Shown here piece by piece: positions 28,477 through 63,605 of a DNA stretch of 64,000 nucleotides. Each line of letters starts with the position of its first letter. Position 1 is the stretch's first letter. Origin of the DNA: Rhododendron vialii (taxonomy: Eukaryota; Streptophyta; Magnoliopsida; Ericales; Ericaceae); NCBI RefSeq assembly GCF_030253575.1, contig NC_080559.1, forward strand, positions 36,157,501 to 36,221,500. The letters run 5' to 3'. The notes below the pieces were generated by a model. That model had not been told where the DNA came from. It saw only the letters and a program-made list of their open reading frames with translations, and did no database searches. Position numbers and translations under genes: made by a program.

Positions 28477-28841
28477 CTTCTAATAAGGGCGCCCTTACCG
28501 TATTACGGTAAGGACGTCCCTTGCCCGACCAATTTGTGATGATCCGAGCCGCTCAATGTGTTCAGAACGTGATTTTAAAGGTACTCGCGAGAAATTAGCA
28601 AAAAAAAAGACCGAAAAGGGCTTGATCCGAGCAGTTTTTGTTTGTATTTTATCGAACGGTTCAAATAAAAACTGCTCAAATCAAGCCCTTTCCGGTCATT
28701 TTTTTTGCTGATTTCTCGTGGGTACCCTTAAAAATCACGTTCTGAACACATTGAGCGGCTCGGATCATCAAAATTTGGTCGGAAAAGAAAAGAAAAGGGG
28801 AAGCCCTTACCGTAATACGGTAAGGGCGCCCTTATTAGAAG
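28477..28841. mobile_element. fold-back element, copy 2 of 4, with 37-bp perfect TIR
   Basis: The 365-bp element has outer arms identical for 37 bases (starting CTTCTAATAAGGGCGCCC, containing the inner palindrome CCGTATTACGG). The inner arms are those shared with copies 1, 3 and 4 (GATGATCCGAGCCGCTCAAT; GAGCAGTTTTTG). It is the best-preserved copy, and the whole element can fold into one hairpin. Confidence 0.85.
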
Positions 28842-28845
28842 CTTA

Positions 28846-28847
<2 letters not shown>

Positions 28848-28899
<52 letters not shown>
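28848..28899. repeat. (TA)n microsatellite
   Basis: About 25 TA units between fold-back copies 2 and 3. Confidence 0.95.
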
Positions 28900-28903
<4 letters not shown>

Positions 28904-29246
28904 GATTCTATAAGAGATCCATTATTTTAATAAAATACGAATCTCCCATTTCTAGATCTAATTTTGATGATCCGAAGCGTTCAATATGTGCAGAACGTGA
29001 TTTTAAGGGTTTTCGCAAGAAATAAGCAAAAAATATAACCGAAAAGTGCTTGTTTTGAGCAGTTTTTAATTGAACCGTTCAATAAAAACTGCTCAAATCA
29101 AACACTTCCCATGTATATTTTTTGCTAATTTGTCTTAGGAACACTTAAAAATCACATTCTGATCACATTGAACGGTTCGGATCATCAAAATTTGATCAAG
29201 ATCATGAGCTCCATATTTTATTAAAATAAGGGGTTTCTCATAGAAC
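28904..29246. repeat. fold-back element, copy 3 of 4
   Basis: The outer arms GATTCTATAAGAGATCC and its partner ending CTCATAGAACC enclose the shared core (AATTTTGATGATCCGAAGCG ... GATCATCAAAATTTGATC). Confidence 0.75.
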
Positions 29247-29279
29247 CCACAAGCTTCTTGTAATTAATAACATTAAGTA

Positions 29280-29575
29280 AGGACCTTAGGTAAGGACTCA
29301 TATGTCCCAATCAAATTTTGATAATTTGAACTGTTTAATGGGTGCAAACCGTGACCTTAAGAGGCTCCGTGAGAAATTAACAAAAAATATGATCAAAAAG
29401 TGCTTGTTTTGAGCAATTTTTTATTGAACTGTTCAGTGAAAACTGCTCAGATCAAACATTTTCCGGTCTTATTTTTTGTTGATTTCAAGCGGGAACCCTT
29501 AAAATCACGTTCTAGTCACACTGAACGGTTCGGATCATTAAAATTCAATCGGGATCTATGAGGTTCTTACTTAAG
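29280..29575. repeat. fold-back element, copy 4 of 4
   Basis: The most diverged copy: the core arms (CAAATTTTGATAATTTGAAC and GTTCGGATCATTAAAATTCAA) are still recognisable, with outer arms around TAAGTAAGGACCTTAGG and TTCTTACTTAAG. Confidence 0.7.
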
Positions 29576-30046
29576 CTATGTAAGAGATTCTTTACAGGAA
29601 GCTGATTATATATATATTTTTCATTCCTCCACAAATAAATAATTGAAAAAAGGGAACAAAAATAAGCAAATTTTTTTTGAGTCCAGATCAAGATTTAGTC
29701 TTTTTTCTTTTTTTATTTTTTGGAAACATGCATGTTTGTCAGATTTTCTTAAAAGAACAACTAATTTGGATATGGGTAAAGACTTGAACCGGTGAAAAGA
29801 TCTTATTTTTTTTATCATTTTATCTTAAAGGATTATAATTAATTTTTAGCTCTAGGGCTCTCGTTAAACCTTAATTGTTCCGATTTTCAATCCGTTTGAA
29901 CCAGTGCAAAGATCTTTTTTTGATTATTTTATCCTCAAGAATCATATTTAATTTTTAGCTCTAGGGCTCTAGTTGAAGAGTCTTAAAAGAAGGATAAAAC
30001 TAAATGTTTCAACACCAAAAAACATAATCCAAAACGCCGTCGTGTT
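29576..30046. other. T-rich stretch with a short direct repeat
   Basis: The segment TATTTAATTTTTAGCTCTAGGGCTC repeats at about 29832 and 29948 with GATTTTCAATCCGTTTGAACC nearby. The same words occur at 19980-20090 inside the Harbinger-like element. No gene is seen. Confidence 0.4.
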
Positions 30047-41610: not shown

Positions 41611-44227
41611 GTTTTGAAAAAAATAGTATAAAGTATATAGCTCTATTATATAAAAACGTAGCCATCAAGCATTAGCCACACAATCACAACAATCAATACT
41701 ATTCAAAGCATTCATGTTGTTGTGCTTAGTGTTTTAATCATGCGATCCAATTTGTTTGTATGTCAGAGTTTGAAAGCTCTTTCATTGGGATGCTAATTCA
41801 TTATTTGATTGAATTTTTTTTTACGTCCGATTAAGTATGTAGTAATAAATATTTTACTTGATTCTTGGCATGAATGATCTAATCCCTCCCACATAAAAGT
41901 TAGATGGTTTCGATTTTTAAAAAATAGCTTAGGCGGCCCTCAAGTGGTGCATTATAGGACTTTAATGCCTTTGGAAGCACCGAATGTGTTCCAACCATGT
42001 GGTTTCTAACATTCGATTATCACCTATTCAGGTGAGAATGATAAAATCGTTAAATCGTAACAGTTTAGATCAAACATTCAAAAAAATGAGTCTGCAGCTA
42101 CCTTTGAAATCTATACATTGAACTCACTTAGTTCTAAACCAAGGTATTCTCCTATAGTCTAATGTACGCTAGTGTGAGCTCCGCGCTCGGCGCACTCGAA
42201 GAGTCACCACCCGAATTTTTGACATGGATGATCCGAGAAATCGAGAGTTTGTTTGAGAGAAAAAGGCTTTTGATCAAGCGAAATCGTTGAGATTTTGGAT
42301 TCGGGAGCCACGTTACGAGCGGGGGAAGGTTTTGTTGAAAAAACACCCCGCTCGCCCGGTAAAGACCGGTCTCTACTAAGCATTTTAAATGGGGGATTTA
42401 ATATCATTTGAAAAACTTAACTTTGATTAAAACATGTACGGGAAAGTGACATGGGGTTTAATATAACATATTGGTGTGCTTGTGGTGCGAACTGTACAGT
42501 ATGAAATGGATGAGCAATGTACAGAAAGTGAAATAACATCATTACAACAGTCTGCCAATATCATGTGAAATGCCGCACGACGACTTGGATACATCGCACG
42601 GTGTGACTAAAACACCGTGCAATGTACCTGTCTACACATTTCAGAATCAGTTTGCTTTTACATGACAAAACAAATCATAGATCCGCAAAATAGTTTGTTA
42701 TATTTTTCGAATCTCTGAAAAAAGATTTACGAGACCATTTTGTTCATCTTATCATGTAAAACAATGTTAAAAGCTTTTTGAAATGTTGAAAGATTTAATA
42801 AAGTCAAAAAGATGACTTTTAAAGCGAAACTTGACTCTGGAATGTACTCGTATGATCTATAAACAACATTAGCTGAAGTAGGAAAAGAATAAGAAAATAA
42901 AGTAATAATGAACAGTACTAAAAATAACGCGCAGTGCAATACGCTATGCTGTGCGATGTTCTAAAGCACCGCACGATTTAGCGTATCCAGTGCAAAAATT
43001 ATTTTTTTTTGTGCTTTTTGAATATAAAGCTCGTTCGAGGCCCAAACCCAGTATAGAAGGACTAGGAAGGGCCCCAGTGAGCTCCCCTCAAGGCCAAAAT
43101 GTGGTTTAGCCAAAGGAATTTATTTATACCTTTTGATCGAGGCTTGAATGTGCTTGAAAGTGGAAGAGTGGAGGTTGATTTGAACTGACTTTTGAGAGAC
43201 TTGTGAGCAAATGAGTGTGGAGAGAGAAAAAGAGAAAAATCAGTTTGAGATTGATTTTGTAATAGCCCAGCTTGTGGGTCGATGTAGAGAGAGAAAAAGA
43301 TGTACGTGAGTGTAATGGGTATAAGGGGTTGTAAAGAGAGAATCAATGGGGGGTGTATTAATAGGCAAGAGGGCCAAGGATGATCAATACAAAGAGGGAG
43401 GCGACTTCTAGGCCGAATAAAATTTATTCTCTACACTTGCAGGCGTGACCGACAACTTTCTGCAACTATTAGAACTTTTTCCGAAACGCCATGCGATATA
43501 ATCAGAAATGCCATGCTGTATATTGAAATCTTGTGCGGCGGAGTAATTTTTTAAAATGCCGCGCGGCGTTTCTGAAATGCCGCGCAGTATGTTGAGATGA
43601 CACATCACATTGAACTTTGCGGAGGCGCCTCGGATACTCCTAGACTTGGACTTGGGCACAGTTTATAGCGTTGGAAAACTTGTCGAGTCCTCTTTCTAAC
43701 CCAATTGGTTTCACTCAAAGACTTTTTATACATTGAAACGTGTGACCATTTTACCATCAGTGTGTCATGGAAAAAGTTATTTTCCACAAAGAAAATGCAT
43801 TTTTCTCTTTGCAATTGAACCGGGGCCACCCTACATGTTTAGAAAAGGGCTTTTCTTGAGGTTTAGAGAAGGAGTAGCAAATGAGCAACAATCGAAGCCT
43901 TGAAGGTATATTTTTCCCTTATTTCATCATTGGAGAACTTAAAGATTATTCAAAGGCCCAAATTGGGGGTGTCTATAGCTAGTCACACGATCACAAAATA
44001 ATTATGACGATCCATACCATTCATTTTGTTATTCTTGATGTTTTAATCACTCTCACCAATTTTTGGGTCTATTGTGTTTTAAAAGCTCCTTCGTCGGGAC
44101 GTAAATTAATTATTATGAAATTTTTTGTTATGTACGATCAAGTACATAACGACAAGAAATTTAATTCATTCTTGGCATGAATGATATAATCCCTCCAATA
44201 TAAAATCTAGATGATTCCGATTTTTCA
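41611..44227. other. decayed LTR-type sequence, no gene
   Basis: Segments at about 41650-41925 and 43960-44225 are diverged direct copies (shared CTTGGCATGAATGAT(C/A)TAATCCCTCC), so they may be old terminal repeats. Between them, 42250-42395 has a leader-like GGATTCGGGAGCCACGTTACG...CGGTCTCTACT block, often seen in gypsy-type LTR elements. 43340-43365 has a minus-strand TATTAATACA promoter-like word, and 42560-43610 is sprinkled with GCCGCGCGGC / GCACGGTGTG words. No open frame with a domain was found. Confidence 0.4.
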
Positions 44228-44627
44228 AGTGCCATTTACTATCGGCGTGCTTTTTGCCAGTTGCAACTTAATGACTCGAATTTTAAGCATTGTCCTTCTC
44301 AAGGGGAATGGGGTAGAGTAGAAAAGATTTGTCAGTTCTTGAAAGTATTCTATGATGCTACTTGCATTTTCTCGAGTTCGAAATATCTTACATCAAATTT
44401 GTATTTTCTAAAGGTTTGTGCAATTCAATTTCTCTTGAATAAGGAGATGAACAATACTGATCCTTTCAGGAGAAAGATGGACACTCAAATGATGAAGTTT
44501 GACAAGTATTGGTTGGAGCATTCTGTGATCTTAGCAATTGCGGTTATATTTTATCCTCGTTTTAAGTTTCAGTTGGTGGAGTATTCTTATGGAAAGCTTT
44601 ATGGTGAGTCATCTAGTGAGGTATTCT
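44228..44627 (+). pseudogene. hAT transposase fragment (RICESLEEPER/DAYSLEEPER type)
   Basis: An open frame from about 44228 matches the central part of plant hAT transposases: HCPSQGEWGRVEKICQFLKV, FYDATCIFSSSKYLTSNLYF, KFDKYWLEHS, ILAIAVIFYPRFKFQLVEY. This is the RNase-H-fold region after the BED finger; the N-terminal finger and the C-terminal dimerisation domain are missing. The frame ends abruptly at KLYGESSSE, where the tandem array begins, so the gene was truncated at the array's left border. Confidence 0.85.
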
Positions 44628-45804
44628 CGCATGTCCCTCACTTTAAATCGAATGAAAACCCATTATGTATCAATAGAAAGAGTTTTTGAGGTACAAAGAG
44701 ATGATGGAATCCAACCATAAAAAAAAAAAAAAATCAAGTTTCGCTTAAGAAAATTGGGTAGAAAGAAGACCACTACAAAAATCGTCAAGGCCACCAAGAC
44801 TAAAACACGTTCTAGGTTCCATTCGATGATCAAATCCCAAGTTTGTACGTATTTCTTCATTGCTTAAGTGTTTCAAAATTTTCATGGAGCGTCTACATTT
44901 CATCGAAGCATAGGAGAAATCGTTTCAAAGAGTTTTTAAGTTGTGTTGGTAGTCGTAACTTCCAAAATTTGGCTTCGAAACAACATAAGCCCCGCTTTTG
45001 GCGAATGATGAAACAGTTTTTCCCACAGTTCGATGAAGTGCAAATTATTTATAAACTCTTTAAAATTCACTAAACCAACAAAGAAATAACTACGAACTAA
45101 GGATTTGATCACCGAATCAAACTTAGAACATGTTTTAGCCTTAGTCGCCTTGATGATTTTTGTAGTTGTTTATTTCTACCCAATTTTCATGAACGTAATT
45201 CAAATATTTTTATGGTGGAATTGGACCGTCTCTTATTACTTTAAGAACTCTAATTATTTATATATAATGGGATTGATTCGAATAAAATGAGGGACATATG
45301 AGCGTTTTTCGAAATGGATTATTTTTTTGAACCATTGTGGGTAAAATAGTCATATTTCTTGATATCCAAATGATTTTTTTAACCAAACTGCTCGGGTTAG
45401 AAAGAAAATTGAACAATCTTTTAAATGGTTCAAACGATGTGCAAATCGGAGTTCGGAAGTGTCCAGGGCACACACACGATAGAATTCAGAGAAAATTTCA
45501 CTCTATATAAATTACGTATATAAAGTTACAAAAAACTTTGCGGGTACCAAAACCGGCTTACCAACGGGAGCCACACCGGCTCCCCACTCTACCTCACCCT
45601 CTCAGCTCTCACATTGCTACACCACCACCCCTAACTCTAGACAATATCAGATTATATAGAAAACAAGGGGAGCTTTGTCCAACGCCAAATAAGGATATAG
45701 CAAACAAAATAACCAAGGCTCCTCTTCAATGCACTGTAATCTGATCTTTACAGGCTCCAGCTGCAACTGAATTCCAAAGCTTTCAGAAAGCCTTTTTTCG
45801 TGAG
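44628..45804 (-). repeat. inverted first part of the array
   Basis: This segment is the reverse complement of about 46812-47990 (for example GGGTACCAAAACCGG at 45541 against CCGATTTTGGTACCC at 47050, and the 44630 block against 47985). It forms a long inverted repeat with about 1 kb between arms. Confidence 0.85.
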
Positions 45805-45977
45805 CCACTGAGGGTAAAATGGTCACATCTCTTGATATACCAAAGAGATTTTATCCGAACTGGATGGGTTAGAAAGAAAATTGAACAAGCTTTTCAACTG
45901 TTCAAACCACGCGCAGATTGGAGTTCGGGAGTGTCCAGGGAAACCCTTCAAAGTTTGACGTCTTTTGAAGCATTATT

Positions 45978-48171
45978 GCGCCTAAGGCGCAATTTTATGC
46001 GCCCAGGCGCACTTCAAATGCGCCCCAGGCGCATCCCACAATCCAAAACAAGTCAAACTTTGAGAACTTGATACACACACTCCCGAAATCCGATTTGCGT
46101 GTGATTTGAACTGTTGGTAAGCTTGTTCAATTTGCTTTCTAACCCAAGTAGTTTGGATAAAAAAAAAAATCATTTGTATATCAAGAGATGTGACCATATT
46201 ACCCTCATTGGGTCGAAAAAAATTTCTTTCGGTAAAATGCTCATATGTCCCTCATTTGAAATCGGATCAAGACGCATTATATATCAATAATTAGAGTTTT
46301 TAAATTACTAAGAGATGATGGAATACAATCATGAAAAAATTCAAGTTTCCTTTACTTTGTGGGTTTCAAACAACAGAGTAAGCTAGATAGGTACGTAATT
46401 CATGTTCAACACAATGATAATGAGAACCAAAACACAACCACATCTAACAAGTCTATCTCGAGCAAGTTGTGAACATTGGCCATTCACAGAAGGAGTCAAC
46501 GAAAGGGTAGCATAGTGCACAAGTCCCCTGCCACTGTGGATTCTGGGTCACCAATGCAGCATCGCTGTATTATCCCAGTGTGCATAGAGGCCGTTAATCT
46601 AAGAACAATAAGCATCTAGCTTTGACATATGATCGAGGTTTGTTTGTTTATTCCACGAATAAATATCCATCTCTCTAACATATCCACGTCTGTCCGTCCA
46701 TCTTGTTGAATTCTACCCAAGTGGAATGAGTTGCGAGTGTAGGGGATAAATAACCAGGTGTCGGTTGACACATTTTCAACTTATCAGATTGTTAAGGATT
46801 GGCTCACGAAAAAGGCTTTCTGAAAGCTGTGGAATTCAGTTGCAGTTGGAGCCTGTAAAGATCAGATTGTAGTGCATTGAAGAGGAGCCTTGGTTATTTT
46901 GTTTGCCATATCCTTATTTGGCATTGGACAAAGCTCCCCTTGTTTTCTATATAATCTGATATTGTCTTGAGTTAGGAGTGGTGGTGTAGCAATGTGAGAG
47001 CTGAGAGGGTGAGGTAGCGTGGGGAGTCGTTGTGGCTCCCGTTGGTGAGCCGATTTTGGTACCCGCAAAGTTTTTTGTAACTTTGTATACGTAATTTATA
47101 TAGAGTGAAATTTTCTGTGAATTCTATCGTGTGTGTACCCTGGACACTCCCGAACTCCGATTTACACATTGTTTGAACCATTTAAAAGATTGTACAAATT
47201 TCTTTCTAATCCAAGTAGTTTGGTTAAAAAAAATCATTTGGATATCAAGAAATATGACTATTTTACCATCAATGGTTAAAAAAAATAATCCATTTCGAAA
47301 AACGCTCATATTTCCCTCATTTTTAATCGAATCAATCCCATTATATATAAGTAATTAGAGTTGTTAAAGTAATAAAAGACGGTCCAATCCAACCATAAAA
47401 ATATTTAAATTCCGTTCTTGAAAATTGGGTAGAAATAAACAACTTCAAAAATCGTCAAGGCGACTAAAGCTAAAACATGTTCTAAGTTTTATTCGGAGAT
47501 CAAATTCTTAGTTCGTAGGTATATCTTCGTTGGTTAAGTGAATTTCAAAGAGTTTATAAATAATTTGCACTTCATCGAACCGTGGGAAAAACTGTTTCGT
47601 CATTCGCCAAAAGCGGGGCTTATGTAGTTTCGAAGCCAAATTTTGGAAGTTACGACTACAAAAACAACGTAAAAACTTTTTGAAACGATTTCTCCCATGC
47701 TTCGATGAAATGTGGACGCTCCATGAAAATTTTGAAACAGTTAAGCAATGAAGAAATACGTACGAACTTGGGATTTAATCCTCGAGTGGAATCCAGAACG
47801 TGTTTTAGTCTTGGTGGCTTCGACGATTTTTGTAGTGGTCTTCTTTCTACCCAATTTTCTTAAGCGAAACTTGATTTTTTTTATATTTTTTATTGTTGGA
47901 TTCCATCATCTCTTTGTACCTCAAAAACTCTTTCTATTGATACAAAATGGGTTTTGATCCGATTTAAAATGAGGGACATTCAAGCGTTTTACCGAAATGA
48001 ATTATTTTTTTGAACCACTTAGGGTAAAATGGTCACATCTCTTGATATACCAAAGAGATTTTATCAAAAGTGGTTGGGTTAGAAAGAAAATTGAACAAGC
48101 TTTTGAACGGTTCAAACCACGCACAAATTGGAGTTCGGGAGTGTCCAGGGCACGTCTTTTGAATCATTATT
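45978..48171 (+). repeat. array monomer 1
   Basis: 2194 bases from one GCGCCTAAGGCGC marker to the next; the linker has all three GCGCC palindromes. Confidence 0.9.
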
Positions 48172-50357
48172 GCGCCTAAGGCGCAATTCCATGCGCCCAG
48201 GCGCATCCCACAATCCAAAACAAGTCAAACTTTGAGAGCATGATACACACACTCCCAAAATCCGATTTGCGTGTGGTTTAAACCGTTCGAAAGCTTGTTC
48301 AATTTGCTTTAAAACCCAAAGAGTTTGGATAAAAAAAATCATTCATACATCAAGAGATGTGACCATTTTACCCTCAGTGGGTTGAAAAAAATTTATTTCG
48401 GTAAAACGCTCATATGTCCCTCATTTTAAATCAGATCAAGACCCATTATATATCAATAATTAGTGTTTTTAAAGTACTAAGAGATGATGGAATACAGTCA
48501 TGAAAAAATTCTAGTTTCGTTTACTTTGTTGGTTTCAAACAACAGAGTAAGCCAGATAGGTACGTAATTCATGTTCAACTCCATCTCCATGATATTGACA
48601 ACCAAAACACAACCACATCTAGCAAGTTTATCTCGAGCAAGTCGTGAACGTTGGCCATTCACAGAAGGAGTCAACAAAAGGGCAGCATAGTGCACAAGCC
48701 CCCTGCCACTGTGGATTCTGGGTCACCAATGTAGCATTGCTGCATTATCCCAATGTGCAAAGAGGCCGTTAATCTAAGCACAATAAGCATCGAGCTTCGA
48801 CATATGATCGAGGTTTGTTTGTTTATTCCATGAATAAATATCCATCTCTCTCTACATATCCACGTCTGTCCGTCCATCTTGTTGAATTCTACCCAAGTGG
48901 AATGAGTTGCGAATGTAGGGGAAAAATCACCGGGTGTCGGAGGACACATTTTCAACCTATTAGATTGTTAAGGATTGGCTCACGAAAAAAGCCTTTCTGA
49001 AAGCTATGGAATTCAGTTGCAGCTGGAGCCTGTAAAGATCAGATTGCAGTGCATTGAAGAGGAGCTTTGGTTATTTTGTTTGCCATATCCTTATTTGGCG
49101 TTGGACAAAGCACCCCTTATTTTCTTTATAATCTGATATTGTCTTTAGTTAGGGGTGGTGTTGTAGCAATGTGATGGCTGAGAGGGTGAGGTAGAGTGGG
49201 GAGCCGGTGTGGCTCCCGTTGGTGAGCCGGTTTTGGTACCCGCAGAGTTTTTTGTAACTTTGTATACGTAATTTATATAGAGTGAAATTTTCTCTGAATT
49301 CTATCGTGTGTGTGCGCTGGACACTCCCAAACTCCGATTTGCACATCGTTTGAACCATTTAAAAGATTGTTCAATTTTCTTTCTAACCCGAGCAGTTAGG
49401 TTAAAAAAATCATTTGTATATCAAGAAATATGACAATTTTACCCTCAATGGTTCAAAAAAATAATCCATTTCGAAAAACGCTCATATGTCCCTCATTTTT
49501 AATCGAATCAATGCCATTATATATAAATAATTAGAGTTCTTAAAGTAATAAGAGACGGTCCAATCCCACCATAAAAATATTTAAATTCCGTTCACGAAAA
49601 TTGGGTACAAATAAACAACTACAAAAGTCGTCAAGGCGACTAAGGCCAAAACACGTTCTAAGTTTGATTCGGAGATCAAATCCTTAGTTCGTAGGTATTT
49701 CTTCGTTGGTTAAGTGAATTTCAAAGAGTTTATAAATAAATTGCACTTAATCGAACCGTGGGAAAAACTGTTTCGTCATTTTCCGAAAGCAGAGCTTATG
49801 TAGTTTCAAAGCCAAATTTTGAAAGTTACGACTACAAACACAACGTAAAATCTCTTTGAAATGATTTCTCCTATGCTTCGATGAAATGTAGATGCTCCAT
49901 GAAAATTTTGAAACACTTAAGCAATGAAGAAATACGTACGAACTTGGGATTTAATCCTCCAGTAGAACCTAGAACGTGTCTTAGTCGTGGTGGCTTTGAC
50001 GATTTTTGTAGTGGTCTTCTTTCTACCCAATTTTCTTAAGCGAAACTTGATTTTTTTTTTAATGGTTGCTTTCCATCATCTCTTTGTACCTCAAAAACTC
50101 TTTCTATTGATACATAATGGGTTTTGATCCGATTTAAAGTGAGGGACATACGAGCGTTTTACCGAAATGAATTATTTTTTTGAACCACTGAGGGTAAAAT
50201 GGTCACATCTCTTGATATACAAAGGAGATTTTATCTGAACTGGTTGGGTTAGAAAGAAATTTGAACAAGCTTTTCAACGGTTTAAACCACGCACAAATTG
50301 GAGTTCGGGAGTGTCCAGGGCAACCTTTCAAAGTTTGACGTCTTTTGAAGCATTATT
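48172..50357 (+). repeat. array monomer 2
   Basis: 2186 bases. Its linker has lost the third palindrome (ACTTAAAATGCGCCCCAGGCGC) and about 16 bases before the marker. Confidence 0.9.
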
Positions 50358-52543
50358 GCGCCTAAGGCGCAATTCCATGCGCCCAGGCGCACTTAAAATG
50401 CGCCCCAGGCGCATCCCACAATCTAAAACAAGTCAAACTTTGAGAGCTTGATACACACACTCCCGAAATCCTGTTTGCGTGTGGTTTGAACCGTTGGAAA
50501 GCTTGTTCAATTTGCTTTCTAACCCAAGTAGTTTGGATAAAAAAAAAAACATTCGTATATCAAGAGATGTGACCATTTTACACTTAGTGGGTCGAAAAAA
50601 AATTATTTCAATAAACGCTCATATGTCCCTCATTTTAAATCGGATCAAGACCCATTATATATCAATAATTAGTGTTTTTAAAGTACTAAGAGATGATGGA
50701 ATACAATCATGAAAAACTTCAAGTTTCGTTTACTTTGTGGGTTTCAAACAACAGAGTAAGCTAGATAGGTACGTAATTCATGTTAAACTCCATGATAATG
50801 AGAACCCAAACACAACCACATCCATCAAGTCTATCTCGAGCAAGTCGTGAATGTTGGCCATTCAAAGAAGGAGTAAACGAAAGGGCAGCATAGGGCACAA
50901 GTCCCCTGCCACTGTGGATTCTGGGTCACCAATGCAGCATCGCTGCATTATCCCAGTGTGCAGAGAGGCCGTTAATCTAAGCACAATAAGCATCGAGCTT
51001 CGACATATGATCGAGGTTTGTTTGTTTATTCCATGAATAACTATCCATCTCTCTCAACATATCCACGTCTGTCTGTCCATCTTGTTGAATTCTACCCAAG
51101 TGGAATGAGTTGCGAGTGTAGGGGAAAAATCACCGGGTGTCGGAGGACAAATTTTCAACCTATCAGATTGTTAAGGATTGGCTCACGAAAAAAGGCTTTC
51201 CGAAACCTGTGGAATTCAGTTGCAGGTGGAGCCTGTAAAGATCAGATAGCTTTGCATTGAAGAGGAGCCTTGGTTATTTTTTTAGTCATATCCTTATTTG
51301 GCGTTGGACAATGCTCCACTTGTTTTCTATATAATCTGACATTGTCTAGAGTTAGGAGTGGTGGTGTAGCAATGTGAGAGCTGAGACAGTGAGGTAGAGT
51401 GGGGAGCCGGTGTGGCTCCCGTTGGTGAGCCAGTTTTGGTACCCGCAGAGTTTTTTGTAACTTTGTAAACGTAATTTATATGGAGTGAAATTTTCTTTGC
51501 ATTCTATCGTGTGTGTGCCCTGGACACTATCGAACTCTGATTTGCACATCGTTTGCACCATTTAAAAGATTGTTCAATTTTCTTTCTAACCCAAGCAGTT
51601 AGGTTAAAAAAATCATTTGTATATCAAGAAATATGACTATTTTACCCTCAATGGTTCAAAAAAATAATCCATTTCGAAAAACGCTCATCTATCCCTCATT
51701 TTTAAATGAATCAATCCCATTATATATAAATAATTAGAGTTCTTAAAGTAATAAGAGACGGTCCAATCCAACCATAAAAATATTTAAATTCCGTTCGTGA
51801 AAATTGGGTAGAAATAAACAGCTACAAAAATAGTCAAGGCGACTAAGGCTAAAACATGTTCTAAGTTTGATTTGGTGATCAAATCCTTAGTTCGGAGATA
51901 TTTCTTCTTTGGTTAAGTGAATTTCAAAAAGTTTATAAATAATTTGCACTTCATCGAACCGTCGGAAAAACTGTTTCGTCATTCGCCAAAAGCGGGGCTT
52001 ATGTAGATTCGAAGACAAATTTTGGAAGTTACGACTACCAACACAATGTAAAAACTCTATGAAACGATTTCTCCTATGCTTCGATGAAATGTTGATGCTC
52101 CATGAATGGAACCAGGAACGAACTTGGGATTTGATCATCGAATGGAACGTAGAACGTGTTTTAGTCTTGGTGGCCTTGACGATTTTTGTAGTGGTCTTCT
52201 TTCTACCCAATTTTCTAAAGCGAAGCTTGATTTTTTTGTTTTTTTTTATGGTTGGATTCCATCATCTCTTTGTACCTCAAAAACTCTTTCTATTGATACA
52301 TAATGGGTTTTTATCCAATTTAAAGTGAGGGACATACGAGCGTTTTACCGAAATGAATTGTTTTTTTGAACCACTGAGGGTAAAATGGTCACATCTCTTG
52401 ATATACCAAAGAGATTTTATCCGAACTGGTTGGGTTAGAAAGAAAATTGAATAAGATTTTCAACGGTTCAAACCATGCGCAAATTGGAGTTCGGAAGTGT
52501 CCAGGGCAACCCTTCAAAGTTTGACGTCTTTTGAAGCATTATT
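50358..52543 (+). repeat. array monomer 3
   Basis: 2186 bases; linker complete. Confidence 0.9.
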
Positions 52544-54756
52544 GCGCCTAAGGCGCAATTCCATGCGCCCAGGCGCACTTAAAATGCGCCCCAGGCGCAT
52601 CCCACAATCCAAAACAAGTCAAACTTTGAGAGCTTGATACACACACTCCCGAAATCCGATTTGCGTGTGGTTTGAACCGTTGGAAAGCGTGTTCAATTTG
52701 CTTTCTAACCCAAGTATTTTTGATAAAAAAAAAAAATCATTCATATATCAAGAGATGTGACCATTTTACCCTCAGTGGGTTGAAAAAAATTTATTTCGGT
52801 AAAACGCTCATATGTCCCCCATTTTAAATCGAATCAAGACCCATTATATATCAATAATTAGTGTTTTTAAAGTACTAAGAGATGATAGAATACAATCATG
52901 AAAAAGTTCCAGTTTTGTTTACTTTGTTGGTTTCAAACAACAGAGTAAGCTAGACAGGTACGTAATTCATGTTCAGCTCCATGATAATGAGAACCAAAAC
53001 ACAACCACATCTAGCAAGTCTATCTCGAGCAAGTCGTGAACGTTGGCCATTCACTGAAGGAGTCAACGAAAGGGCAGCATAGTGCACAAGCCCCCTGCCA
53101 CTGTGGATTCTGGGTCACCAATGCAGCATCGCTGCATTATTCCACTGTGCAGAGAGGCCGTTAATCTAAGCACAAGAAGCATCGAGCTTCGACATATGAT
53201 CGAGGTTTGTTTGTTTATTCCATGAATAAATATCCATCTTTCTCAACATATCCACGTCTGTCTGTCCATCTTGTTGAATTCTACCCAAGTGGAATGAGTT
53301 GCGAGTGTAGGGGAAAAATCACCAGGTGTCGGAGGACACATGTTCAACCTATCAGATTGTTAAGTATTGGCTCATGAAAATAGGCTTTCTGAAAGCTGTG
53401 GAATTCAGTTGCAGCTGGAGCCTGTAAAGATCAGATTGCAGTGCATTGAAGAGGAGCCTTGGTTATTTTGTGTGCCATATCCTTATTTGGCGTCGGACAA
53501 AGCTCCTCTTGTTTTCTATATAATGTGATATTGTCTAGAGATAGGGGTGGTGGTGTAGCAATGTGACAGCTGAGAGGGTGAGGTAGAGTGGGGAGCCGGT
53601 GTGGCTCCCGTTGGTGAGCCGGTTTTGGTACCCGCAGAGTTTTTTGTAACTTTGTATACGTAATTTATATAGAGTGAAATTTTCTCTGAATTCTATCGTA
53701 TGTGCGTGCCTTGGACACTCTCCCGAACTCCGATTTGTACATCGTTTGAACCATTTAAAAGATTGTTCAATTTTCTTTCTAACCCGAGCAGTTAGGTTAA
53801 AAAAATCATTTGTATATCAAGAAATATGACTATTTTACCCTCAATGGTTCAAAAAAATAATCCATTTCAAAAAACGCTCATATGTCTCTTATTTTTAATC
53901 GAATCAATCCCATTATATATAAATAATTAGAGTTCTTAAAGTAATAAGAGACGCTCCAATCCAACCATAAAAATATTTAAATTCCGTTCGTGAAAATTGG
54001 GTAGAAATAAACAACTACAAAAATCGTCAAGGCGACTAAGGCTAAAACATGTTCTAAGTTTGATTCGGTGATCAAATCCTTAGTTCGTAGGTATTTCTTC
54101 GTTGGTTAAGTGAATTTCAAAGAGTTTCTAAATAATTTGCACTTCATCGAACCGTGTGAAAAACTGTTTCGTCATTCGCCGAAAGCGGGGCTTATGTAGT
54201 TTCGAAGCCAAATTTTGGAAGATATGACTACCAACACAACGTAAAAACTCTTAGAAACAATTTCTCCTATGCTTCGATGAAATGTAGATGCTCCATGAAA
54301 ATTTTGAAACACTTAAGCAATTAAGAAATACGTACGAACTTGGGATTTGATCATTGAATGGAACGTAGAACGTGTTTTAGTCTTGGTGGCCTTGACGATT
54401 TTTGTAGTGGTCTTCTTTCTACCCAATTTTCATAAGCGAAACTTGATATTTTTTTTTTTAATGGTTGGATTCCATCATCTCTTTGTACCTCAAAAATTCT
54501 TTCTATTGATACATAATGGGTTTTGATCCAATTTAAAGTGAGGGACATACAAGCGTTTTACCGAAATGAATTATTTTTTTGGACCACTAAGGGTAAAATT
54601 GTTACATCTCTTGATATAAAAAAGAGATTTTATCCGAACTGGTTGGGTTAGAAAGAAAATTGAACAAGCTTTTCAACAGTTCAAACCACGCGCAAATTGG
54701 AGTTCGGGAGTGCCCAGGGCAACCCTTTAAAGTTTGACGTCTTTTAAAGCATTATT
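52544..54756 (+). repeat. array monomer 4
   Basis: 2213 bases; linker complete. Confidence 0.9.
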
Positions 54757-55151
54757 GCGCCTAAGGCGCAATTCTATGCGTCCAGGCGCACTTTAAATGC
54801 GCCCCAGGCGCATCCCACAATCCAAAACAAGTCAAACTTTGAGAACTTGATACACACACTCCCGAAATCCGATTTGCATGTGGTTTGAACCGTTGGTAAG
54901 CTTGTTCAATTTGCTTTCTAACCCAAGTAGTTTGGATTAAAAAAAAAAAAATCATTCGTATATAAAGAGATGTGACCATTTTACCCTCAGTGGGTCAAAA
55001 AAAAATTATTTCGGTAAAATGCTCGTATGTCCCTCATTTTAAATTGGATCAAGACCTATTATATATCAATAATTAGTGTTTTTAAAGTACTAAGAGATGA
55101 TGGAATACAATCATGAAAAAATTCAAGTTTCGTTTACTTTGTGGGTTTCAA
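54757..55151 (+). repeat. array monomer 5, truncated
   Basis: Breaks at GTGGGTTTCAA, where the other monomers continue ACAACAGAGTAAGC. Confidence 0.9.
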
Positions 55152-56503
55152 TTGCTCTCCCCTCCAGCCCCTCCCCCATCTTTGTGCAACTAAGGTTTCA
55201 AAATGTGAGTAGCGAAATAAAGTCTAGAATTCGTTTTTTTTTTTTTTTTGGTCACAACGAGGACTAACGTGGAACATGTACATATGCGTGTATGCACATA
55301 TATGCTCACACTCACATGTGAAGCTTCTATGATCCCCCGCTCTCCCACTCCCGCCCTGCTTGTGCGATTGAGGTTCAATACGTGATTAACGGAAGAATGT
55401 CTGGAATTTGTTCGATTTTTGGCGTACAGCTAGTACTATATGAAATTTGTATGTGTATACTGTATATGTGCACACACATACACACTAATATATTTAGAAG
55501 AGTACCGTAGATATCAGCTTGAGAATTTGATGAGATTAGACCACCTGATCAATCCTTTTTGTAGGTAGGGACTCTAAAATGAGTTTGATCATTACTAGAA
55601 AGCAAGCTCCGTTTACGTCAATGAGTACCAATTTACTTTCCATTGTATCGCTATAAATTCATGGATTCACAAAATCAAGTGCTTCAATCCTGTTTTTTTA
55701 ACAAGGAGATTAGAGTGTGAGATTGGATTGGATTGGATTATATATTGGTCACGCATTCTGGATAGCAAAGATTTTGGAACGATGCAACCGATCGAAGCTA
55801 TGCAGAACATGACAACGCTAGCTCCTTCCAGGGCCCAGTGACCTTATGATGATGACGATGATGGTGGTGGTTGCCGGACTTCCTTTGCTCTCCTCCCAGT
55901 CTTTCGAACAGCTTTGTTGACCACCTTCTGATCCACATACTTCATCGGTGATGTTGCTTGATCTTGTATGTATATTCTTAATTGTTCGCTCGGCTATATA
56001 TGCACTTACACACCTCCAAAAAATGATGATGAAATTCAAATGTGCTTGATATTGTTAGGAGGGTGAAGCCTGAGGTTTCCCAAGCGTTCTGTAATTCCTG
56101 TCCAAATCGGGTGAGAGCCGTGTGAACAGCCCGTGACGCGGAGAAGAAATTCTAACTTCCGTCCGAATGGTCGTACACAGACAGAACGCGTGAAGTCTGT
56201 ATCACACATTTCTGAAGAACTAATTTCACTCATATATTTTTATGCAATGGTTCTTTTATTATCAGCATAATTTTATAACATGTTAATTATTGTCGTCGTT
56301 ACTGTACCATTCTCATATTTTTGAATCATTCTTCTCACAAATACCCCACAACCTTTTACTAATGCGGCTCTCTTTCCCCTCCCAATTCTCCACCCAAAAT
56401 CACCCTGTAGAGCATCTTCTTTTTCATGGTGTACTATACGCTCGTTCACAAAGGTAAGGGTAAATTATCTTAAACCCCCATGAACTAAGGGTGTTATATA
56501 CAA
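55152..56503. other. unique-looking flank, no supported gene
   Basis: 55165-55420 holds a diverged direct repeat (CTCTCCC...TTGTGC(A/G)A(C/T)T(A/G)AGGTT). 55845-55875 is an ATGATGATGACGATGATGG tract. The minus strand around 55840-55960 has a short frame with His-rich coding (NHHHHRHHHK) and no family match. I see nothing else to name. Confidence 0.35.
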
Positions 56504-56655
56504 CTAGAGGCCGGGCACACGCGATGCATGTGAAAATCGAATTTTGATTATGTTGGCAACATATACACAATAGCTTATCGCTTATTGGTTAATCAAATTT
56601 TGACAAAATAATCAAAATTTGACTTACACACGCATCGCATGTGCCCGACCTCTAG
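56504..56655. mobile_element. small TIR element (CTAGAGG family), copy 1
   Basis: 152 bp; CTAGAGGCCGGGCACACGCG at the left pairs with CGCATGTGCCCGACCTCTAG at the right. The internal TCAAATTTTGA / AATCAAAATTTGA words are shared with the copy at 59210-59335. Confidence 0.75.
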
Positions 56656-56852
56656 TATTACATCGAATAGTGGAATATGCACATCAAATGGAGAGAGAAG
56701 AGAGAGTGGGTAGGTTTGCTGCTTTTGTACCTTCTTTTTGGTATGAACTGGCTTGAAACAGAGCTTTTAGACAAAGATTTCATATCTCAGGAGCTTTTAC
56801 TATTGAATAGCCGAAAACAGTACTGAACTGAACGGGACAGAATAATCTGAAA
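56656..56852. other. short spacer before the LINE
   Basis: No feature seen. Confidence 0.3.
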
Positions 56853-58665
56853 TATGGTTGGTTATTTTTTACCCTCGAAAAGATGCATGGAGAAAATTCA
56901 CGCTATTGGTTGGGATAACGTTACAAAACCGAAGCAGTTAGGGGGTCTTGGGTTGCGGAAATCCAGGGTTGCAATGGCAAAATTGAATTGGAAGTTTTCC
57001 AATAATTCTGACCCGCTTTGGACTCGCATTCTTCAAGATCGTTACCATTCCACGGGCAGGAGATGCTCCAAAACCTCCACGGCTCCACCACTTGGAGGGG
57101 TATTCAAGCAGGGAAGAAACTCGTTGATAAGGGTACTCGTGTTCGTTTGGGCAATGGCCTTTCTACCTCCTTTTGGTGGGACAACTGGCTGGGGGATGGG
57201 ATCCTTCGATCGATCGAGGGCCCTCTTCACAACCATGAATCTGATCTTTTAGTTCGTGACTGTTGGACAAATTTTAGCTGGAACCTTGGCATTACTTCCT
57301 TTGAGTTCCCGGAGTCCATTCTTAATTCAATCTACAAAACCACGTTCCAGTGGTTCAACAACCAACCTGATCGCATCATTTGGCATCTCACTCCGAATGG
57401 TGAGTTTAGTTCCACCTCTGCCCATTCTCTCATTACCCCCATGGAATCGCTCACCTCCCACCTCCATTGGAAATGGATTTGGCGTCTCCTGTGTACCTTT
57501 CGTATCCATCACTTTGTCTGGCTTGCTGTTCAGGATCGACTTCTTACAGGTAGTAATCTTTTTACTCGGCATATCACCACCTCCCCGGACTGTTGTTGGT
57601 GCCCTTCTGTGTCTGAAACTGCTTGTCATGTTCTCCGCATTTGTACCCGAGCTGTGTCCTTTTGGGCAGCAATTCAGTTTCCCTTGCTTAACTCTCAGAA
57701 CAACTCCTTCAACTGGATTTTCAATAATGCCAAGATTCCGCGTACACACTGCTCGGGCACCCTTTGGCAGGTCATCTTTCTCTTTGCTATTTGGCATATT
57801 TGGGTGGATAGAAATAAGCGAATCTTCGAATTTAACTCTAACTCGAATTGGACGGATCCCTCTTCTGTTGCTAAGACTATCTTAAACAAATCTTTGGAAT
57901 GGCACTTCTTGGTCCAGGACAAACCTAAGGGACAGAGAAATGACATTGGTGCGGGGTGGGTTCCTCCTAGTGAAAATTTTGTCAAGCTAAACACAGATGG
58001 AGCTTTTAATGTGGCTTTGGGTACAGTAGGAACGCCTGGAACGGGAGGTATTCTCCGTGACCACCTTGGCAGATGGGTTGGTGGATTCCATAGAAGCCTG
58101 AAATTTTGGCCTTGCGCGATGGCCTGGTTTTGGCATAGGCAGAAAATGTCTAAGAATTTAGAAATTGAAGTTGATGCTTTGGGTGTGATACAGTTGATTG
58201 GTGATCACCAAACAATAAACCACCCACATGGTAACATTTTACTTGATTGCAAGTCCCTCCTAGAAGAGTTTGAAGCCGTGTCCATCAAGCACATCTACCG
58301 GGAAATAAATCATTGTGCGGATGCGTTGGCAAATGACGCACCAATTTCGGTGGGAGATTTTCATATCTACCCTTACATGCCTAATTGTATTGGGACGGAG
58401 GGACCGTGCTGTGCGGGGCGAATCGCCGCCGCTCCGGTCTCGGTTTGATAATCGAAAACGTTCACTTCGTAGAGCTTGTCGAATAGAACAAGTGTACCAA
58501 AAATCAACTCATTCGGATATCATTAAGTGTCTCATCCAAACATTATTATCTTCCATTGTATTGCTATTTTATTTTATGCAGATTTGATTTGATTGGGGTT
58601 GTATACCGCCGGTTTGTAAACTCTTAATTTTTGTTCAATGCATCTTATTTTACCAAAAAAAAAAA
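56853..58665 (+). mobile_element. 5'-truncated L1-type LINE
   Basis: A non-LTR retrotransposon 3' end: the tail of the reverse transcriptase ORF, an RNase H domain, a 3' UTR and an A-tail at 58655-58665 (after TTATTTTACC). 5' truncation and a poly(A) end are normal for target-primed reverse transcription. Target-site duplications could not be fixed. Confidence 0.85.
56860..58448 (+). pseudogene. LINE ORF2 C-terminal part: zf-RVT and RNase H domains
   Basis: Begins with the motif that follows the reverse transcriptase in plant L1 elements (IGWDNVTKPKQLGGLGLRK), then a frameshift near 57055 in the DRYHSTG/QEMLQN region. The next frame continues to 58448. It holds the zf-RVT region (HWKWIWRLLCTFRIHHFVWL, then Cys-rich CCWCPSVSETACHVLRIC) and an RNase H domain: KLNTDGAF (first catalytic Asp), NLEIEVDALGV (Asp) and IYREINHCADALAN (last Asp). 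The catalytic Glu segment is out of frame: between about 58092 and 58153 the expected ALRDGLVLA is read in another frame, with compensating indels on either side. It is not functional. Confidence 0.85.
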
Positions 58666-58695: not shown

Positions 58696-59031
58696 GCTCC
58701 CAAGTGGTATGGGAGCATCATACTCCCAATGAATTACAGACAACATTTACCATTCATTAAGGCAACACTTACCATTCACCAAGGCAGAACTTACCATACA
58801 AGTGTGGTAAGTTCTGCCTTATACAATGGTAAGTGTTGCCTTAGTAAATGGTAAGTGTTGCATGTTCTGTGGTAAGTAATCCTCCGTTTTTTAGGTCAAA
58901 ACCGCCTCGTTTTATAACAAAACCACCCTATTTTTAGTTTTTGGATTTGATCTAAGGGCTGTGATTTATCTATGTTCAATCTAAGGGCTGTAATTCATTG
59001 GGAGTATGATGCTCCCATACCACTTGGGAGC
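58696..59031. mobile_element. MITE with about 45-bp TIRs
   Basis: The 336-bp element's arms begin GCTCCCAAGTGGTATGGGAG and stay identical to about CCCAATGAATTACAG. Inside is a further palindrome (GGCAACACTTACCATTC...ATGGTAAGTGTTGCC, 58768-58850). No clear target duplication; class unknown, perhaps Mutator-like. Confidence 0.75.
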
Positions 59032-59335: not shown

Positions 59336-59549
59336 TTAAAAGTGAAATTAAGTTCTTTCATTTGGTAATTTGGAAAACAAAAGTTTGACACAATGACACA
59401 TTTTCATCTACAATAAACATGTGCTCCCCTTTATACACCAAACATTTGCTCCCCTTATAGAGCAATTGAATTTTTATTAAATTCATAAAGTATCTGTTGA
59501 TATCTTTTTATTTTTTGTAATTATATGTTTTTACTAAATATCAGTATCG
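59336..59549. other. AT-rich spacer
   Basis: No feature seen. Confidence 0.3.
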
Positions 59550-59930
59550 GTTGAACTTGTTGTGATTCCACCCAAGTGGGGTGATGTGCACGAAGCACAG
59601 GATCACTCCCTACCTTATTTCCTTACGAGTATTAGGGTTTTCTTTTCGCCTATATACTGATGTATATGAGAGCAAAGAGGTGTGTGACTGAAACAATGTG
59701 AGGGAGAGGGTGAGGTCGAGTGGGTGAGCCGGTGTGGCTCACCGGAGCGGTGGAGAGCCGGTTTTAGCTCTCCCGGAGAGGTTTTTTCATCTTGTATTAT
59801 TGTGTAAATAATATTAAGGGAGTTTTTTCTCATATCGTTGTGTTGTTAAGTGACTCCGGATCCTAACAACTATTTGAGAATTGCGACAATACTACGTGTG
59901 TATTGTAAGTGTTTTTTCCAGTGTAATTTC
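59550..59930 (+). repeat. copia-like LTR fragment
   Basis: Begins near TGTGATTCCACCCAAGTGGGG, has a TATA-like CGCCTATATACTG (about 59648-59660), then GAGAGGGTGAGGTCGAGTGGGTGAGCCGGTGTGGCTC and GTGTAAATAATATTAAGGGAG. The same order of words (ACCCAAGTGG, TCTATATAATCTGA, GAGAGGGTGAGGTAGAGTGGGGAGCCGG) occurs in every array monomer. Exact ends and duplications were not resolved. Confidence 0.5.
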
Positions 59931-60925: not shown

Positions 60926-61305
60926 GAATTTGAAATACCCTACTTATCCTACAATGACCCCAGAAGATGCATCTGTCAGGAGGTACTTCTTCAGAAAGGA
61001 GGGAAAGAACAGTTAAGATGCGTAACACAAACAAAACGTCAATGTTAGCACGGGGGCATTTCCCCCATCACTCATTGTAGCCACACATTGTGGTGAACCC
61101 ATGCACTTGGCGAATTTGAAATACCTGACTTATCCTACAAAAACCCTAGAAAATGTATCTGTCAGGAGGTGCTTCTTCTGGAATCTGAAAGAAGGAAAAG
61201 CACAGTTAAGATGTGAAATGCAAACAAAACATTAATGTTAGCACGGAGGCATTCACCCCAACACTCATTGTAGCCACACATTGTGCTGAACCCACGCACT
61301 TGGTG
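60926..61305. repeat. tandem duplication carrying the last exon of the C3H16-like gene
   Basis: Copy A 60926-61111 and copy B 61112 to about 61305, offset 186 bases. They share GAATTTGAAATACC, ATCTGTCAGGAGGT and CACTCATTGTAGCCACACATTGTG. Copy B holds the intact exon. Copy A has lost the splice acceptor and the stop codon. Confidence 0.9.
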
Positions 61306-63605
61306 ATAAGCTCCACAAACAAGTGGCTACAAGGATTGTCAGGGCAATGACCAAGGACCGCTAAATAATTTCCACAACATACGATTACAAGTAGCAACAA
61401 CAATAATACCAAAGCAATCATAAATAAGATGTCGAGAATATTGGAAGGACCTAGGAACTTTTTCTTTTGCAAAACATCATGCTAAAAGAAAAGTAGTGAC
61501 CCATAGCATAAACACATTGGATTGGGGCAGGGTTGGGAGTTGAATGGGACCCATGGCTAGGCAGTCCCCCAGGCGCCTAGATGCCAATGCCAAATGTAGG
61601 TTGGGGTACCGCCCACCTAGTGTTGGCGTGCCATTGCAAAATGAAATAAAAGAACTGTCTCTGAGGCTCAAACCTAGGACTTTGAGCCTAGCAAGGCTTG
61701 AATCCATGCATCTAATGTGGAATAAACATGAAATGACTTTCAATTTAACTCTTTATTCAAATCAGATTCTCACCACATCAAACATGTAGTTAACTAGCTA
61801 ACGGAGCTTCTAGCCTCTGAAAGCAGGAAAGTCCAGTATAAACAGGGGCTACACAAGTCAAATGAATAGTCTTTACCTCTCCAGAAATCCATTCCTCTTT
61901 CAACCAGATATTATCATCCACTGAACCATTCTGCTTAGGCATATTATCACTGCAGTAAGGGAGCACAAACCAAAACTATCACAAAAGCATAAAAACAATT
62001 GTTAACACAACATTTCCAAGTTCCGACAGATTATAGTTCTCAAATGATGTGGTGGTGGCAAGACTGAGAGCAAGTGTCAATTTCAACACTGCAATAGAGA
62101 CTTGTTTATCAACATTGATGTAGGACATGAAAAGGAAGGGGCTTACTTGGGGCTCAACATATTTAGCTTTATCTGGCTAAATGTACGGCAATTAGACTTC
62201 TAAAGTTTTAATTGGCGTAAAAAGGGAAGACATTTTGTCATTCAAATTAGGCCTGAAAATCACAATATTAGGACTATCCTGGGTTGTGGATGTATCCATG
62301 AACAGTAGCTTGGGTATATTTCCATTGAAGTCGGGAACTTGTTTAACAAAGAAAGTTCAAAATGGGATTAGGATTGTATAGCAGTACACCAAAGGGGATA
62401 AAAGGTGCTAAAATGAACTGGTTGTGGTCAAGGCTTAGAAGGTCTAGAAGCAAAGGAAGCTTCAGAAGTAGAAGAACAAGCAGTTCGACGCAATTAGATT
62501 TTTTTAGGTTTTACAGTTGCATCATAGAATTTCAAAACCGATGACAGGCCGAAAAAGTTCTCTACACTAATCTATCTTGGATTGTAAGACTTAGGCTCTT
62601 ACATGGTTATATCAAAGTAAACCCAAAGGATTTAAATTACTGTTCGCGAGTTGGAAAGCACAAAATTTAAGACTTGGGAACTTGAAATTAAAAAGGACTT
62701 GGATTCTAAAACCTACAATAAACCAACTGAAAACAATGCCAAAAGACCCAATTATGAAACTTGGCCCTCACTACAACCAATGTAGCTCAACTCAAGCCAT
62801 GCCCATCCAGTTAAAATTAACTTAAAAATGAACCCATTTTGCTCTCAGAACTAGAAAAGCTAGACTCAACGATAACGGATAATAAATGGTTCAAACCTCG
62901 AGTTTTTTACCAATTTTTTTTCTTCTTTAAATGATACTTATTTTCCTTGATCTTCTAACAACAGCACCATACTATAAAAGGTCCAGTAGAGGAGATGAAA
63001 TAAAGCAAATAATAAGGTTAGGGCAAATGCTGGTTATCTTCTGTTTCTCTTTTTAAGAGAAGATGTATTTTACTGTTATGTAGTTCCAATTCAATATTCA
63101 GGAGCTAGATCAGTTGACAATAAACTAGCTAGAATTGCATCAACAAATATCATAGAATTGGACCTAAAAACTAAAAGCAACTTCACCAAGAACTTACCTC
63201 AAATCCACATTCTCAGATAACTGTCCGATTGCAGTAGGGTTAGAGTTTAGCATCTTTGAAAGTATTGGGGACTGGATGCTTGCTGAACTAGGAATTTGTG
63301 GGGACATTGCTGAAGTGGAAAATGGGTTACGTTCTGCACTAATGGCTCTATTACTGAAGGTCGCTGTACTGACGGCAAAAGAACCTCCAAATGACTGGTT
63401 ACGAGGTTGACTTCCATGAGAACCTACCACATGATTGAGTTAGAGTCAACATCCACAGTCCACACCCATAGCATTATAGTTTTCAACATTTAACCTTAAA
63501 GTTGCACCTGCAGTTCCAAATGGCGAGTTGTTTGTCCCAAACACACTAGTAGTCTGACTGGAGTTTTCAGCTGAATGAAAAGCGTTCTCTGATGGAGTAG
63601 CAAGC
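61146..63605 (-). CDS. C3H16: zinc finger CCCH protein 16-like / NUP42-like FG nucleoporin, 3' exons
   Basis: Four minus-strand exons join in frame: 63605-63508, 63423-63198, 61949-61877 and 61184-61146 (stop TAG at 61148-61146). Introns are 84, 1248 and 692 bases, all GT-AG. The protein segment has FG repeats (SVFGTNNSPFGTAG, QSFGGSF), a Ser/Thr/Asn-rich linker (NPFSTSAMSPQIPSS, GQLSENVDL) and the C-terminal motif DDNIWLKEEWISGE then IPEEAPPDRYIF. That end, with FG repeats, matches what I recall of the Arabidopsis C3H16/CG1 protein, the plant relative of NUP42/NLP1, which docks mRNA-export factors at the cytoplasmic face of the nuclear pore. The N-terminal CCCH finger and first exons lie beyond the right edge, so the finger itself is not seen. 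The last exon is tandemly duplicated downstream. Confidence 0.75.
61306..61876 (-). other. last intron of the C3H16-like gene
   Basis: Contains a minus-strand segment (61540-61700) with GGTTTGAGCCTC, a box B-like word, and GGCGCCTGGGGGACTGCC. It may be an old SINE, but no tail or duplication was confirmed. Confidence 0.35.
61950..63197 (-). other. 1.25-kb intron of the C3H16-like gene
   Basis: AT-rich, bounded by GAG|GTAAGT (63198/63197) and CTGCAG|T (61950/61949). No inner gene seen. Confidence 0.6.

What the first reader, a model, noticed from the sequence alone, without database searches (positions are those of the whole stretch)
44628..55151. A 10.5-kb tandem array of about 2.19-kb monomers made of alternating inverted modules
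Five markers at near-constant spacing (2194, 2186, 2186, 2213) define a tandem array. Each monomer holds one 0.5-kb AT-rich module three times in alternating orientation, so each can fold into about 1-kb palindromes (for example 49313-50322, from CCCTGGACACTCCC to GGGAGTGTCCAGGG). Tandem satellites rarely have monomers of this size with this much internal inversion. The RNA would be strongly double-stranded and a likely small-RNA source. I know no named family with this plan.
Basis: partly seen in the sequence, partly recalled or inferred. Interest (0 to 1): 0.75.

Follow-up and report, generated by a model that had tools for sequence, protein, structure and literature searches.

The report
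TE-mosaic tandem array with internal palindromes
A stretch of plant DNA that seems to be built from remnants of dispersed repeats, already containing large palindromes, was copied in tandem about four times within a short period and has been decaying since; it looks like ordinary genome debris rather than a new kind of element.

Summary
The tandem array is real. Each unit carries a 0.28-kb module M three times (+,-,+), giving two overlapping palindromes (~1.01 and ~0.70 kb). M copies at different positions are 77-85% alike, at the same position in different units 90-96%, and the tree splits by position: the palindromes are older than the multiplication. Differences between units are mostly private (296 of 325), close to a star: a short burst with little later homogenisation. 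The rest of the unit includes a truncated relative of an LTR-like repeat at 59547-59843; M has a diverged relative at 43627-43871. So the monomer looks like a mosaic of dispersed repeats. No known protein or RNA family, Helitron end, primer-binding site or target-site duplication was found. Composite TE-derived tandem repeats, long TE-related plant monomers and a foldback-derived satellite are in print. New member of a known kind; low interest. Genome-wide copy number and small RNAs were not tested: the genome search did not complete.

The parts
44626..45807 (-). U0: inverted half unit (consensus 1007-2189 read backwards) at the left end of the array
   Evidence: blastn minus-strand matches of 1181-1185 columns at 91.2-94.5% to all four full units; 93.1-94.8% in the multiple alignment; consensus span
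45793..48004 (+). U1: full head-to-tail unit
48005..50174 (+). U2: full head-to-tail unit
50175..52360 (+). U3: full head-to-tail unit
52361..54573 (+). U4: full head-to-tail unit, of the four full units the closest to the consensus
54574..55151 (+). U5: partial unit (578 nt, consensus 1-575), end of the array
49313..50322 (.). palindrome P1 (example copy): M+ / inner arm / inner arm inverted / M-
   Evidence: self-complementary at 74% over 1033 columns; RNA fold of 49325-50310 z -28.5
50037..50732 (.). palindrome P2 (example copy): M- / GC-rich loop / M3+; shares M- with P1
   Evidence: self-complementary at 78% over 714 columns; RNA fold z -37.5
49313..49592 (+). module M, P1 type (others: 47138-47416, 51516-51795, 53707-53988, and in U0 45192-45470 on the minus strand)
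50057..50322 (-). module M, inverted copy shared by P1 and P2 (others: 47880-48152, 52243-52508, 54456-54721; partial 45781-45940)
50457..50730 (+). module M, third copy M3 (others: 46077-46352, 48249-48521, 52643-52919, 54856-55134). A further partial M, 44626-44723, lies in U0 and is the counterpart of the inverted copy
46704..47136 (+). LTR-like block in U1 (consensus 911-1344; also U2 48880-49313, U3 51083-51516, U4 53272-53707, and in part, inverted, in U0), ending where M begins
   Evidence: consensus 1155-1344 is 69% identical to 59650-59843 (E 1e-16); its start matches 59547-59589 weakly (E 0.16 against the whole window, 2e-4 against 401 bases); coordinates; the name LTR is recalled, not from a library
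43627..43871 (+). diverged single relative of module M in the left flank
   Evidence: nhmmer with a profile of 14 M copies, E 7.5e-20, the only hit in the window outside the array at E up to 10
44204..44620 (+). hAT transposase exon fragment ending close to the left edge of the array (not part of the unit; its end is set by eye)
   Evidence: PF14372, E 2.2e-23, for the stretch 44204-44689; six protein hits, 48-83% identical over 63-83% of the query
59547..59843 (+). dispersed relative of the LTR-like block, outside the array

Best explanation
The array is a small, inert, composite tandem repeat. Step 1 (order shown, route unknown): an AT-rich repeat module M became triplicated in alternating orientation next to other repeat debris (an LTR-like fragment), making a segment with two overlapping palindromes. 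Step 2 (a short burst is inferred from the near-star divergence): a 2.2-kb stretch of this segment was multiplied to four full and one partial head-to-tail copies plus one inverted half copy. The most likely route, inferred, is replication-based: the palindrome-prone segment formed a circle, or was re-copied by a stalled fork, and the product was joined back at a break by end joining (non-integer number of units, ends at unrelated places in the unit, an inverted piece joined through about 3 shared bases). Step 3 (shown): since then the copies have drifted apart nearly independently, with the highest rate of change at CG sites and little homogenisation. Function: none needed; any dsRNA or small RNA would be a by-product of the palindromes.
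For: M copies at different positions 77-85% alike, same-position copies 90-96%, tree split by position with supports 0.98-1.0: triplication older than amplification. Identity of all six pairs of full units lies within 92.2-94.3%; 296 private against 29 shared differences; a star simulation gives 13 shared on average (95% range 7-20, maximum 26 of 300 runs). Conflicting 2:2 site patterns among U1-U4, 10/8/3, p = 0.16. Mosaic content: LTR-like block with a relative at 59547-59843, M relative at 43627-43871. Array ends: consensus 2189 of the inverted piece on the left, 575 on the right; the U0/U1 joint sits in GAGCCA/GAACCA (read by eye). CG transitions 55 of 736 cells against 46 of 6426 at A/T sites.
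Against: 29 shared differences exceed all 300 star simulations, and the most frequent sharing pair is two neighbours (U1-U2, 7), so some shared ancestry or gene conversion exists. The pre-amplification locus is not in the window and no plant genome could be searched, so the original joint is unknown. The circle or re-copying step rests on three junctions read by eye. The mosaic claim rests on one outside relative for each of two blocks.
Confidence: 0.7

Rival explanations
1. Classical satellite growth by repeated unequal crossing over between sister chromatids.
For: Head-to-tail array with a constant period; excess of shared differences over a star (29 against 13 expected), the most frequent pair being neighbours U1-U2 (7).
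Against: Stepwise growth should leave nested groups of units; the six pairs of full units are almost equally distant, the closest pair U2-U4 (94.3%) are not neighbours, and shared changes also join U2-U4 (5) and U1-U5 (4). Unequal crossing over does not by itself make the inverted half unit.
Confidence: 0.2
2. A tandem of a non-autonomous LTR retrotransposon sharing LTRs, or an LTR-UTR tandem like CRM1TR/CRM4TR of maize, with the palindromes lying in the untranslated region.
For: Each unit has an LTR-like block (consensus 911-1344) followed by sequence without a known protein family, as in CRM-derived repeats.
Against: No primer-binding site after the block (best 5 mismatches of 12 within 1300-1420; best anywhere 4 of 12), no purine tract before it by eye, and the match with the outside relative stops where M starts, short of that relative's apparent end near 59870.
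Confidence: 0.1
3. A Helitron that was copied by rolling circle into a concatemer.
For: A Helitron relic lies in the same window (Pfam at 6774-8983); [quoted passage not shown]
Against: No perfect hairpin (stem 6 or more) before CTRR-T, nor before CTRR joined to TC, on either strand of the unit consensus; array ends fall at unrelated places in the unit.
Confidence: 0.04
4. A functional dsRNA locus: the palindromes are transcribed and feed 21-24-nt small RNAs that silence relatives of M elsewhere.
For: Very stable predicted hairpins (-409 kcal/mol for 986 nt, -388 for 696 nt); relatives of M and of the LTR-like block lie outside the array; CG change, higher in the palindromes though not significantly (8.3% against 4.9%), fits past methylation.
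Against: No transcript or small-RNA evidence was available; palindromes are only 71-79% self-complementary and drift no slower than the rest of the unit (2.6-4.5% from consensus against 1.8-3.9%), so no sign of selection.
Confidence: 0.12

Closest known systems
Composite satellite monomers from 'TE graveyards' (PMC12628747; passages and one section read)
   Same: Monomer made of successive stretches resembling different mobile elements; inverted repeats and palindromes proposed as aids to tandemisation
   Different: Here one short array of about 4.3 units is seen; whether the unit is amplified elsewhere is unknown
Tetris / TIR-220 of Drosophila virilis (PMC4079207; passages read)
   Same: Parts of an inverted-repeat (foldback) element supplied a tandem repeat
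   Different: There ~220-bp repeats inside the TIRs expanded; here the whole multi-palindrome segment is the unit, and no transposon ends were found
CRM1TR and CRM4TR of maize; sobo and potato centromeric repeats (PMC3648361; passages read)
   Same: Plant tandem monomers containing LTR pieces joined to other sequence; potato monomers are of kb size
   Different: No identified parent element here, no PBS, palindromes make up most of the unit, array of ~10 kb
Retrotransposon-derived short tandem arrays of Lathyrus sativus (PMC7004042; passages read)
   Same: Short TE-derived tandem arrays that only occasionally expand
   Different: Those arrays lie in the 3' UTR of Ogre elements and recur across the genome

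Membership tests
Composite TE-derived tandem repeat | head-to-tail copies of one unit | tested here: met
Composite TE-derived tandem repeat | unit contains pieces of different mobile elements | tested here: inconclusive
   M and the LTR-like block each have one relative outside the array, in different places, so they are separate dispersed repeats; which named TE families they belong to was not tested
Satellite DNA proper | long arrays, many copies in the genome | not testable with these tools
   search of the own genome unanswered 13 times
Satellite DNA proper | copies homogenised (concerted evolution) | tested here: not met
   296 private of 325 differences; nearly flat pairwise distances; a small excess of shared changes remains
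Foldback / long-TIR DNA transposon (P1 or P2) | long terminal inverted repeats | tested here: met
Foldback / long-TIR DNA transposon (P1 or P2) | target-site duplication at the palindrome ends | tested here: inconclusive
   flanks of P1 and P2 in the consensus, compared by eye only, show no evident direct repeat; the unit is old enough for one to have decayed
LTR-sharing retrotransposon tandem | primer-binding site after the LTR | tested here: not met
   one recalled PBS motif only
Helitron concatemer | hairpin + CTRR 3' end, TC 5' end at unit joints | tested here: not met
   perfect stems only; motif recalled
dsRNA / siRNA locus | mapped small RNAs | not testable with these tools
   no small-RNA data held

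The most novel reading that the evidence does not exclude
The palindromes themselves drive the amplification: a unit with two overlapping palindromes sharing an arm is a self-priming or fork-stalling template, so that such segments are re-copied in bursts and throw off inverted pieces such as U0, giving an under-described route from repeat debris to tandem arrays.
Probability: 0.15. Interest if true: 0.5.

Novelty: new member of a known kind. Interest (0 to 1): 0.2.

Why it matters
It is a readable snapshot of the step from repeat debris to tandem array: triplication of a module, then a burst of unit copying, then nearly independent decay. It fits published ideas rather than adding a new kind. 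If the unit proves to be multi-copy with the same inverted joint, it could test whether palindromes seed tandem amplification.

Tried and rejected
Rejected: protein-coding function. The longest stop-free stretches in U4 are 59-93 codons by frame; two overlapping stretches in U3 of 124 and 129 codons have no Pfam match above its cut-off (two sub-threshold matches to the first, E 0.0018 and 0.003). Rejected: known RNA family (0 matches at gathering score in the whole window) and tRNA (0). Rejected: Helitron ends, PBS. Not settled: whether the hAT gene resumes right of the array; a six-frame reading of 55130-56860 was looked at by eye only, shows no obvious hAT part, and was not searched. Target-site duplications of P1, P2 and the array: by eye only, none seen. 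A lead from memory, not tested: part of the unit (consensus about 590-900, minus strand) resembles the 3' part of AU-type plant SINEs; one paper search with a recalled 10-base motif found 0 papers. Paper searches: six; no listed title reports this unit, but titles and starts of abstracts are all that was seen of most, and no repeat library was searched.
Full report
WHAT IS THERE. The window is plant-like DNA with relics of several mobile elements (Helitron N-terminal and PIF1 helicase domains at 6774-8983, a hAT piece at 44204-44689, LINE reverse-transcriptase parts at 57012-58448; Pfam, ten proteins scanned). Repeat finding and self-blastn confirm a tandem array between 44626 and 55151. The head-to-tail part starts at 45793: U1 45793-48004, U2 48005-50174, U3 50175-52360, U4 52361-54573 and a partial U5 54574-55151, together about 4.3 units; the consensus is 2209 nt. 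To its left lies U0, 44626-45807, an inverted half unit. The six pairs of full units are 92.2-94.3% identical; U0 is 93.1-94.8% identical to the full units.

INSIDE THE UNIT. A module M of about 280 nt occurs three times, + - +. M+ and M- are the outer parts of a ~1.01-kb palindrome P1, whose arms run to its centre; M- and the third copy M3+ flank a ~134-nt GC-rich loop and form a ~0.70-kb palindrome P2; P1 and P2 share M-. Folding as RNA gives z-scores of -28.5 (49325-50310, most of P1) and -37.5 (50037-50732, P2), and -1.4 for the non-palindromic block 48560-49300, 20 shuffles each.

ORDER OF EVENTS. Among 14 near-complete M copies (two truncated copies of 16 left out), copies at the same position in different units are 90-96% alike and copies at different positions 77-85%; the tree separates the three positions with supports of 0.98-1.0. 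So the alternating triplication came first and the unit multiplied later. Differences from the unit consensus are 296 private and 29 shared (8 columns without a majority and gaps left out). Under a star with the observed rates, 300 simulations gave 13 shared on average and 26 at most. The history is near a star, with a small remainder of shared descent or gene conversion, most often between the neighbours U1 and U2 (7 changes), then U2 and U4 (5). The 2:2 patterns among U1-U4 conflict (10, 8, 3; p = 0.16). Transitions at CG sites are 55 of 736 cells, against 46 of 6426 at A/T sites, the usual mark of methylated repeats; they are still only a minority of all differences. CG change was 46 of 552 in palindromic and 9 of 184 in other parts, p = 0.15. 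CpG observed/expected of the units (0.84-0.93) is above that of the rest of the window (0.70; 23 control windows of 2.2 kb, median 0.72, range 0.35-1.03), so the array is not depleted of CpG.

WHAT THE UNIT IS MADE OF. Consensus 1155-1344 is 69% identical to 59650-59843 (E 1e-16). The start of the same block (about 911) matches 59547-59589, weakly (E 0.16 against the window; 2e-4 against 401 bases). The outside copy reads like a Ty1/copia LTR to me (TGTTG start, AACA end, TATA box); that name is recalled and untested, and no second LTR or coding part of such an element was identified next to it. In the unit the block ends where M begins. M has one diverged relative outside the array at 43627-43871 (E 7.5e-20; the only nhmmer hit up to E 10). 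Weaker blastn hits of M-like sequence at 27048-27126 (E 4e-4) and 29879-29913 (E 0.02) were seen but not by the profile. No Pfam family above cut-off in the two longest stop-free stretches and no Rfam family was found.

EDGES. The left edge follows a hAT transposase exon closely (PF14372); three of the six homologous proteins (P0002, P0003, P0005) continue past this point. No hAT part was seen to the right by eye. The U0/U1 joint lies at GAGCCA/GAACCA, about 3 identical bases, and the ends of the array fall at unrelated points of the unit (consensus 2189 at the left end, 575 at the right end). No target-site duplication was recognised by eye.

MECHANISM. Best supported: a segment of repeat debris with two palindromes was multiplied in a short burst and then left to decay. 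Shown: the two-step order, the near-star, the inverted piece, the non-integer number of units. Inferred: one burst, and a replication-based route (circle or re-copied template, then end joining). Unequal crossing over alone does not explain the inverted piece or the nearly flat distances. Helitron concatemer and LTR-sharing tandem fail their tests. Against the reading: the shared changes exceed every star simulation, the ancestral locus was not found, and the junctions were read by eye.

KNOWN KIND. A 2025 review describes composite satellite monomers with stretches of several TEs and proposes that palindromes and inverted repeats help tandemisation (PMC12628747, its section 5 read). Tetris gave a foldback-derived tandem repeat (PMC4079207, passages). 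Potato monomers of 979 bp to 5.4 kb, four of six retrotransposon-related, are cited in PMC3648361 (passages). The Vaccinium satellites looked at for comparison are short, 36-240 bp (PMC7290377, passages). This array differs in the amount of internal inversion; I see that as a difference of degree and file it as a new member of a known kind. Membership in any named repeat family is untested because no plant library or genome could be searched.

Noticed in passing
28202-29575: A second cluster of alternating palindromic repeats: four copies of a ~255-bp repeat (28202-28458, 28530-28782, 28957-29208, 29310-29562; 71-78% alike), largely self-complementary, with an 83% palindrome at 28452-28866. 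The array unit has no blastn match inside it at E up to 10.
   Followed up: partly
27579-27941: Two adjacent ~170-bp repeats, 76% alike, themselves self-complementary.
   Followed up: no
6774-8983: Helitron relic: Helitron_like_N and PIF1-like helicase domains in two overlapping frames; further stop-free stretches at 5786-6586 (no Pfam match) and 11134-11559 (not scanned) may belong to it.
   Followed up: no
4442-5294; 17883-18407; 24567-25258; 60926-61306: Short two-copy direct duplications of ~410, ~262, ~280 and ~193 bp, 84-92% alike.
   Followed up: no
56503-56656 and 58741-58860: Small self-palindromic, MITE-like sequences of ~155 bp (75%) and 120 bp (85%) on either side of the LINE relic 57012-58448.
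   Followed up: no
41673-41921 and 43980-44228: A ~250-bp direct repeat, 73% alike, one copy running into the hAT exon beside the array.
   Followed up: no
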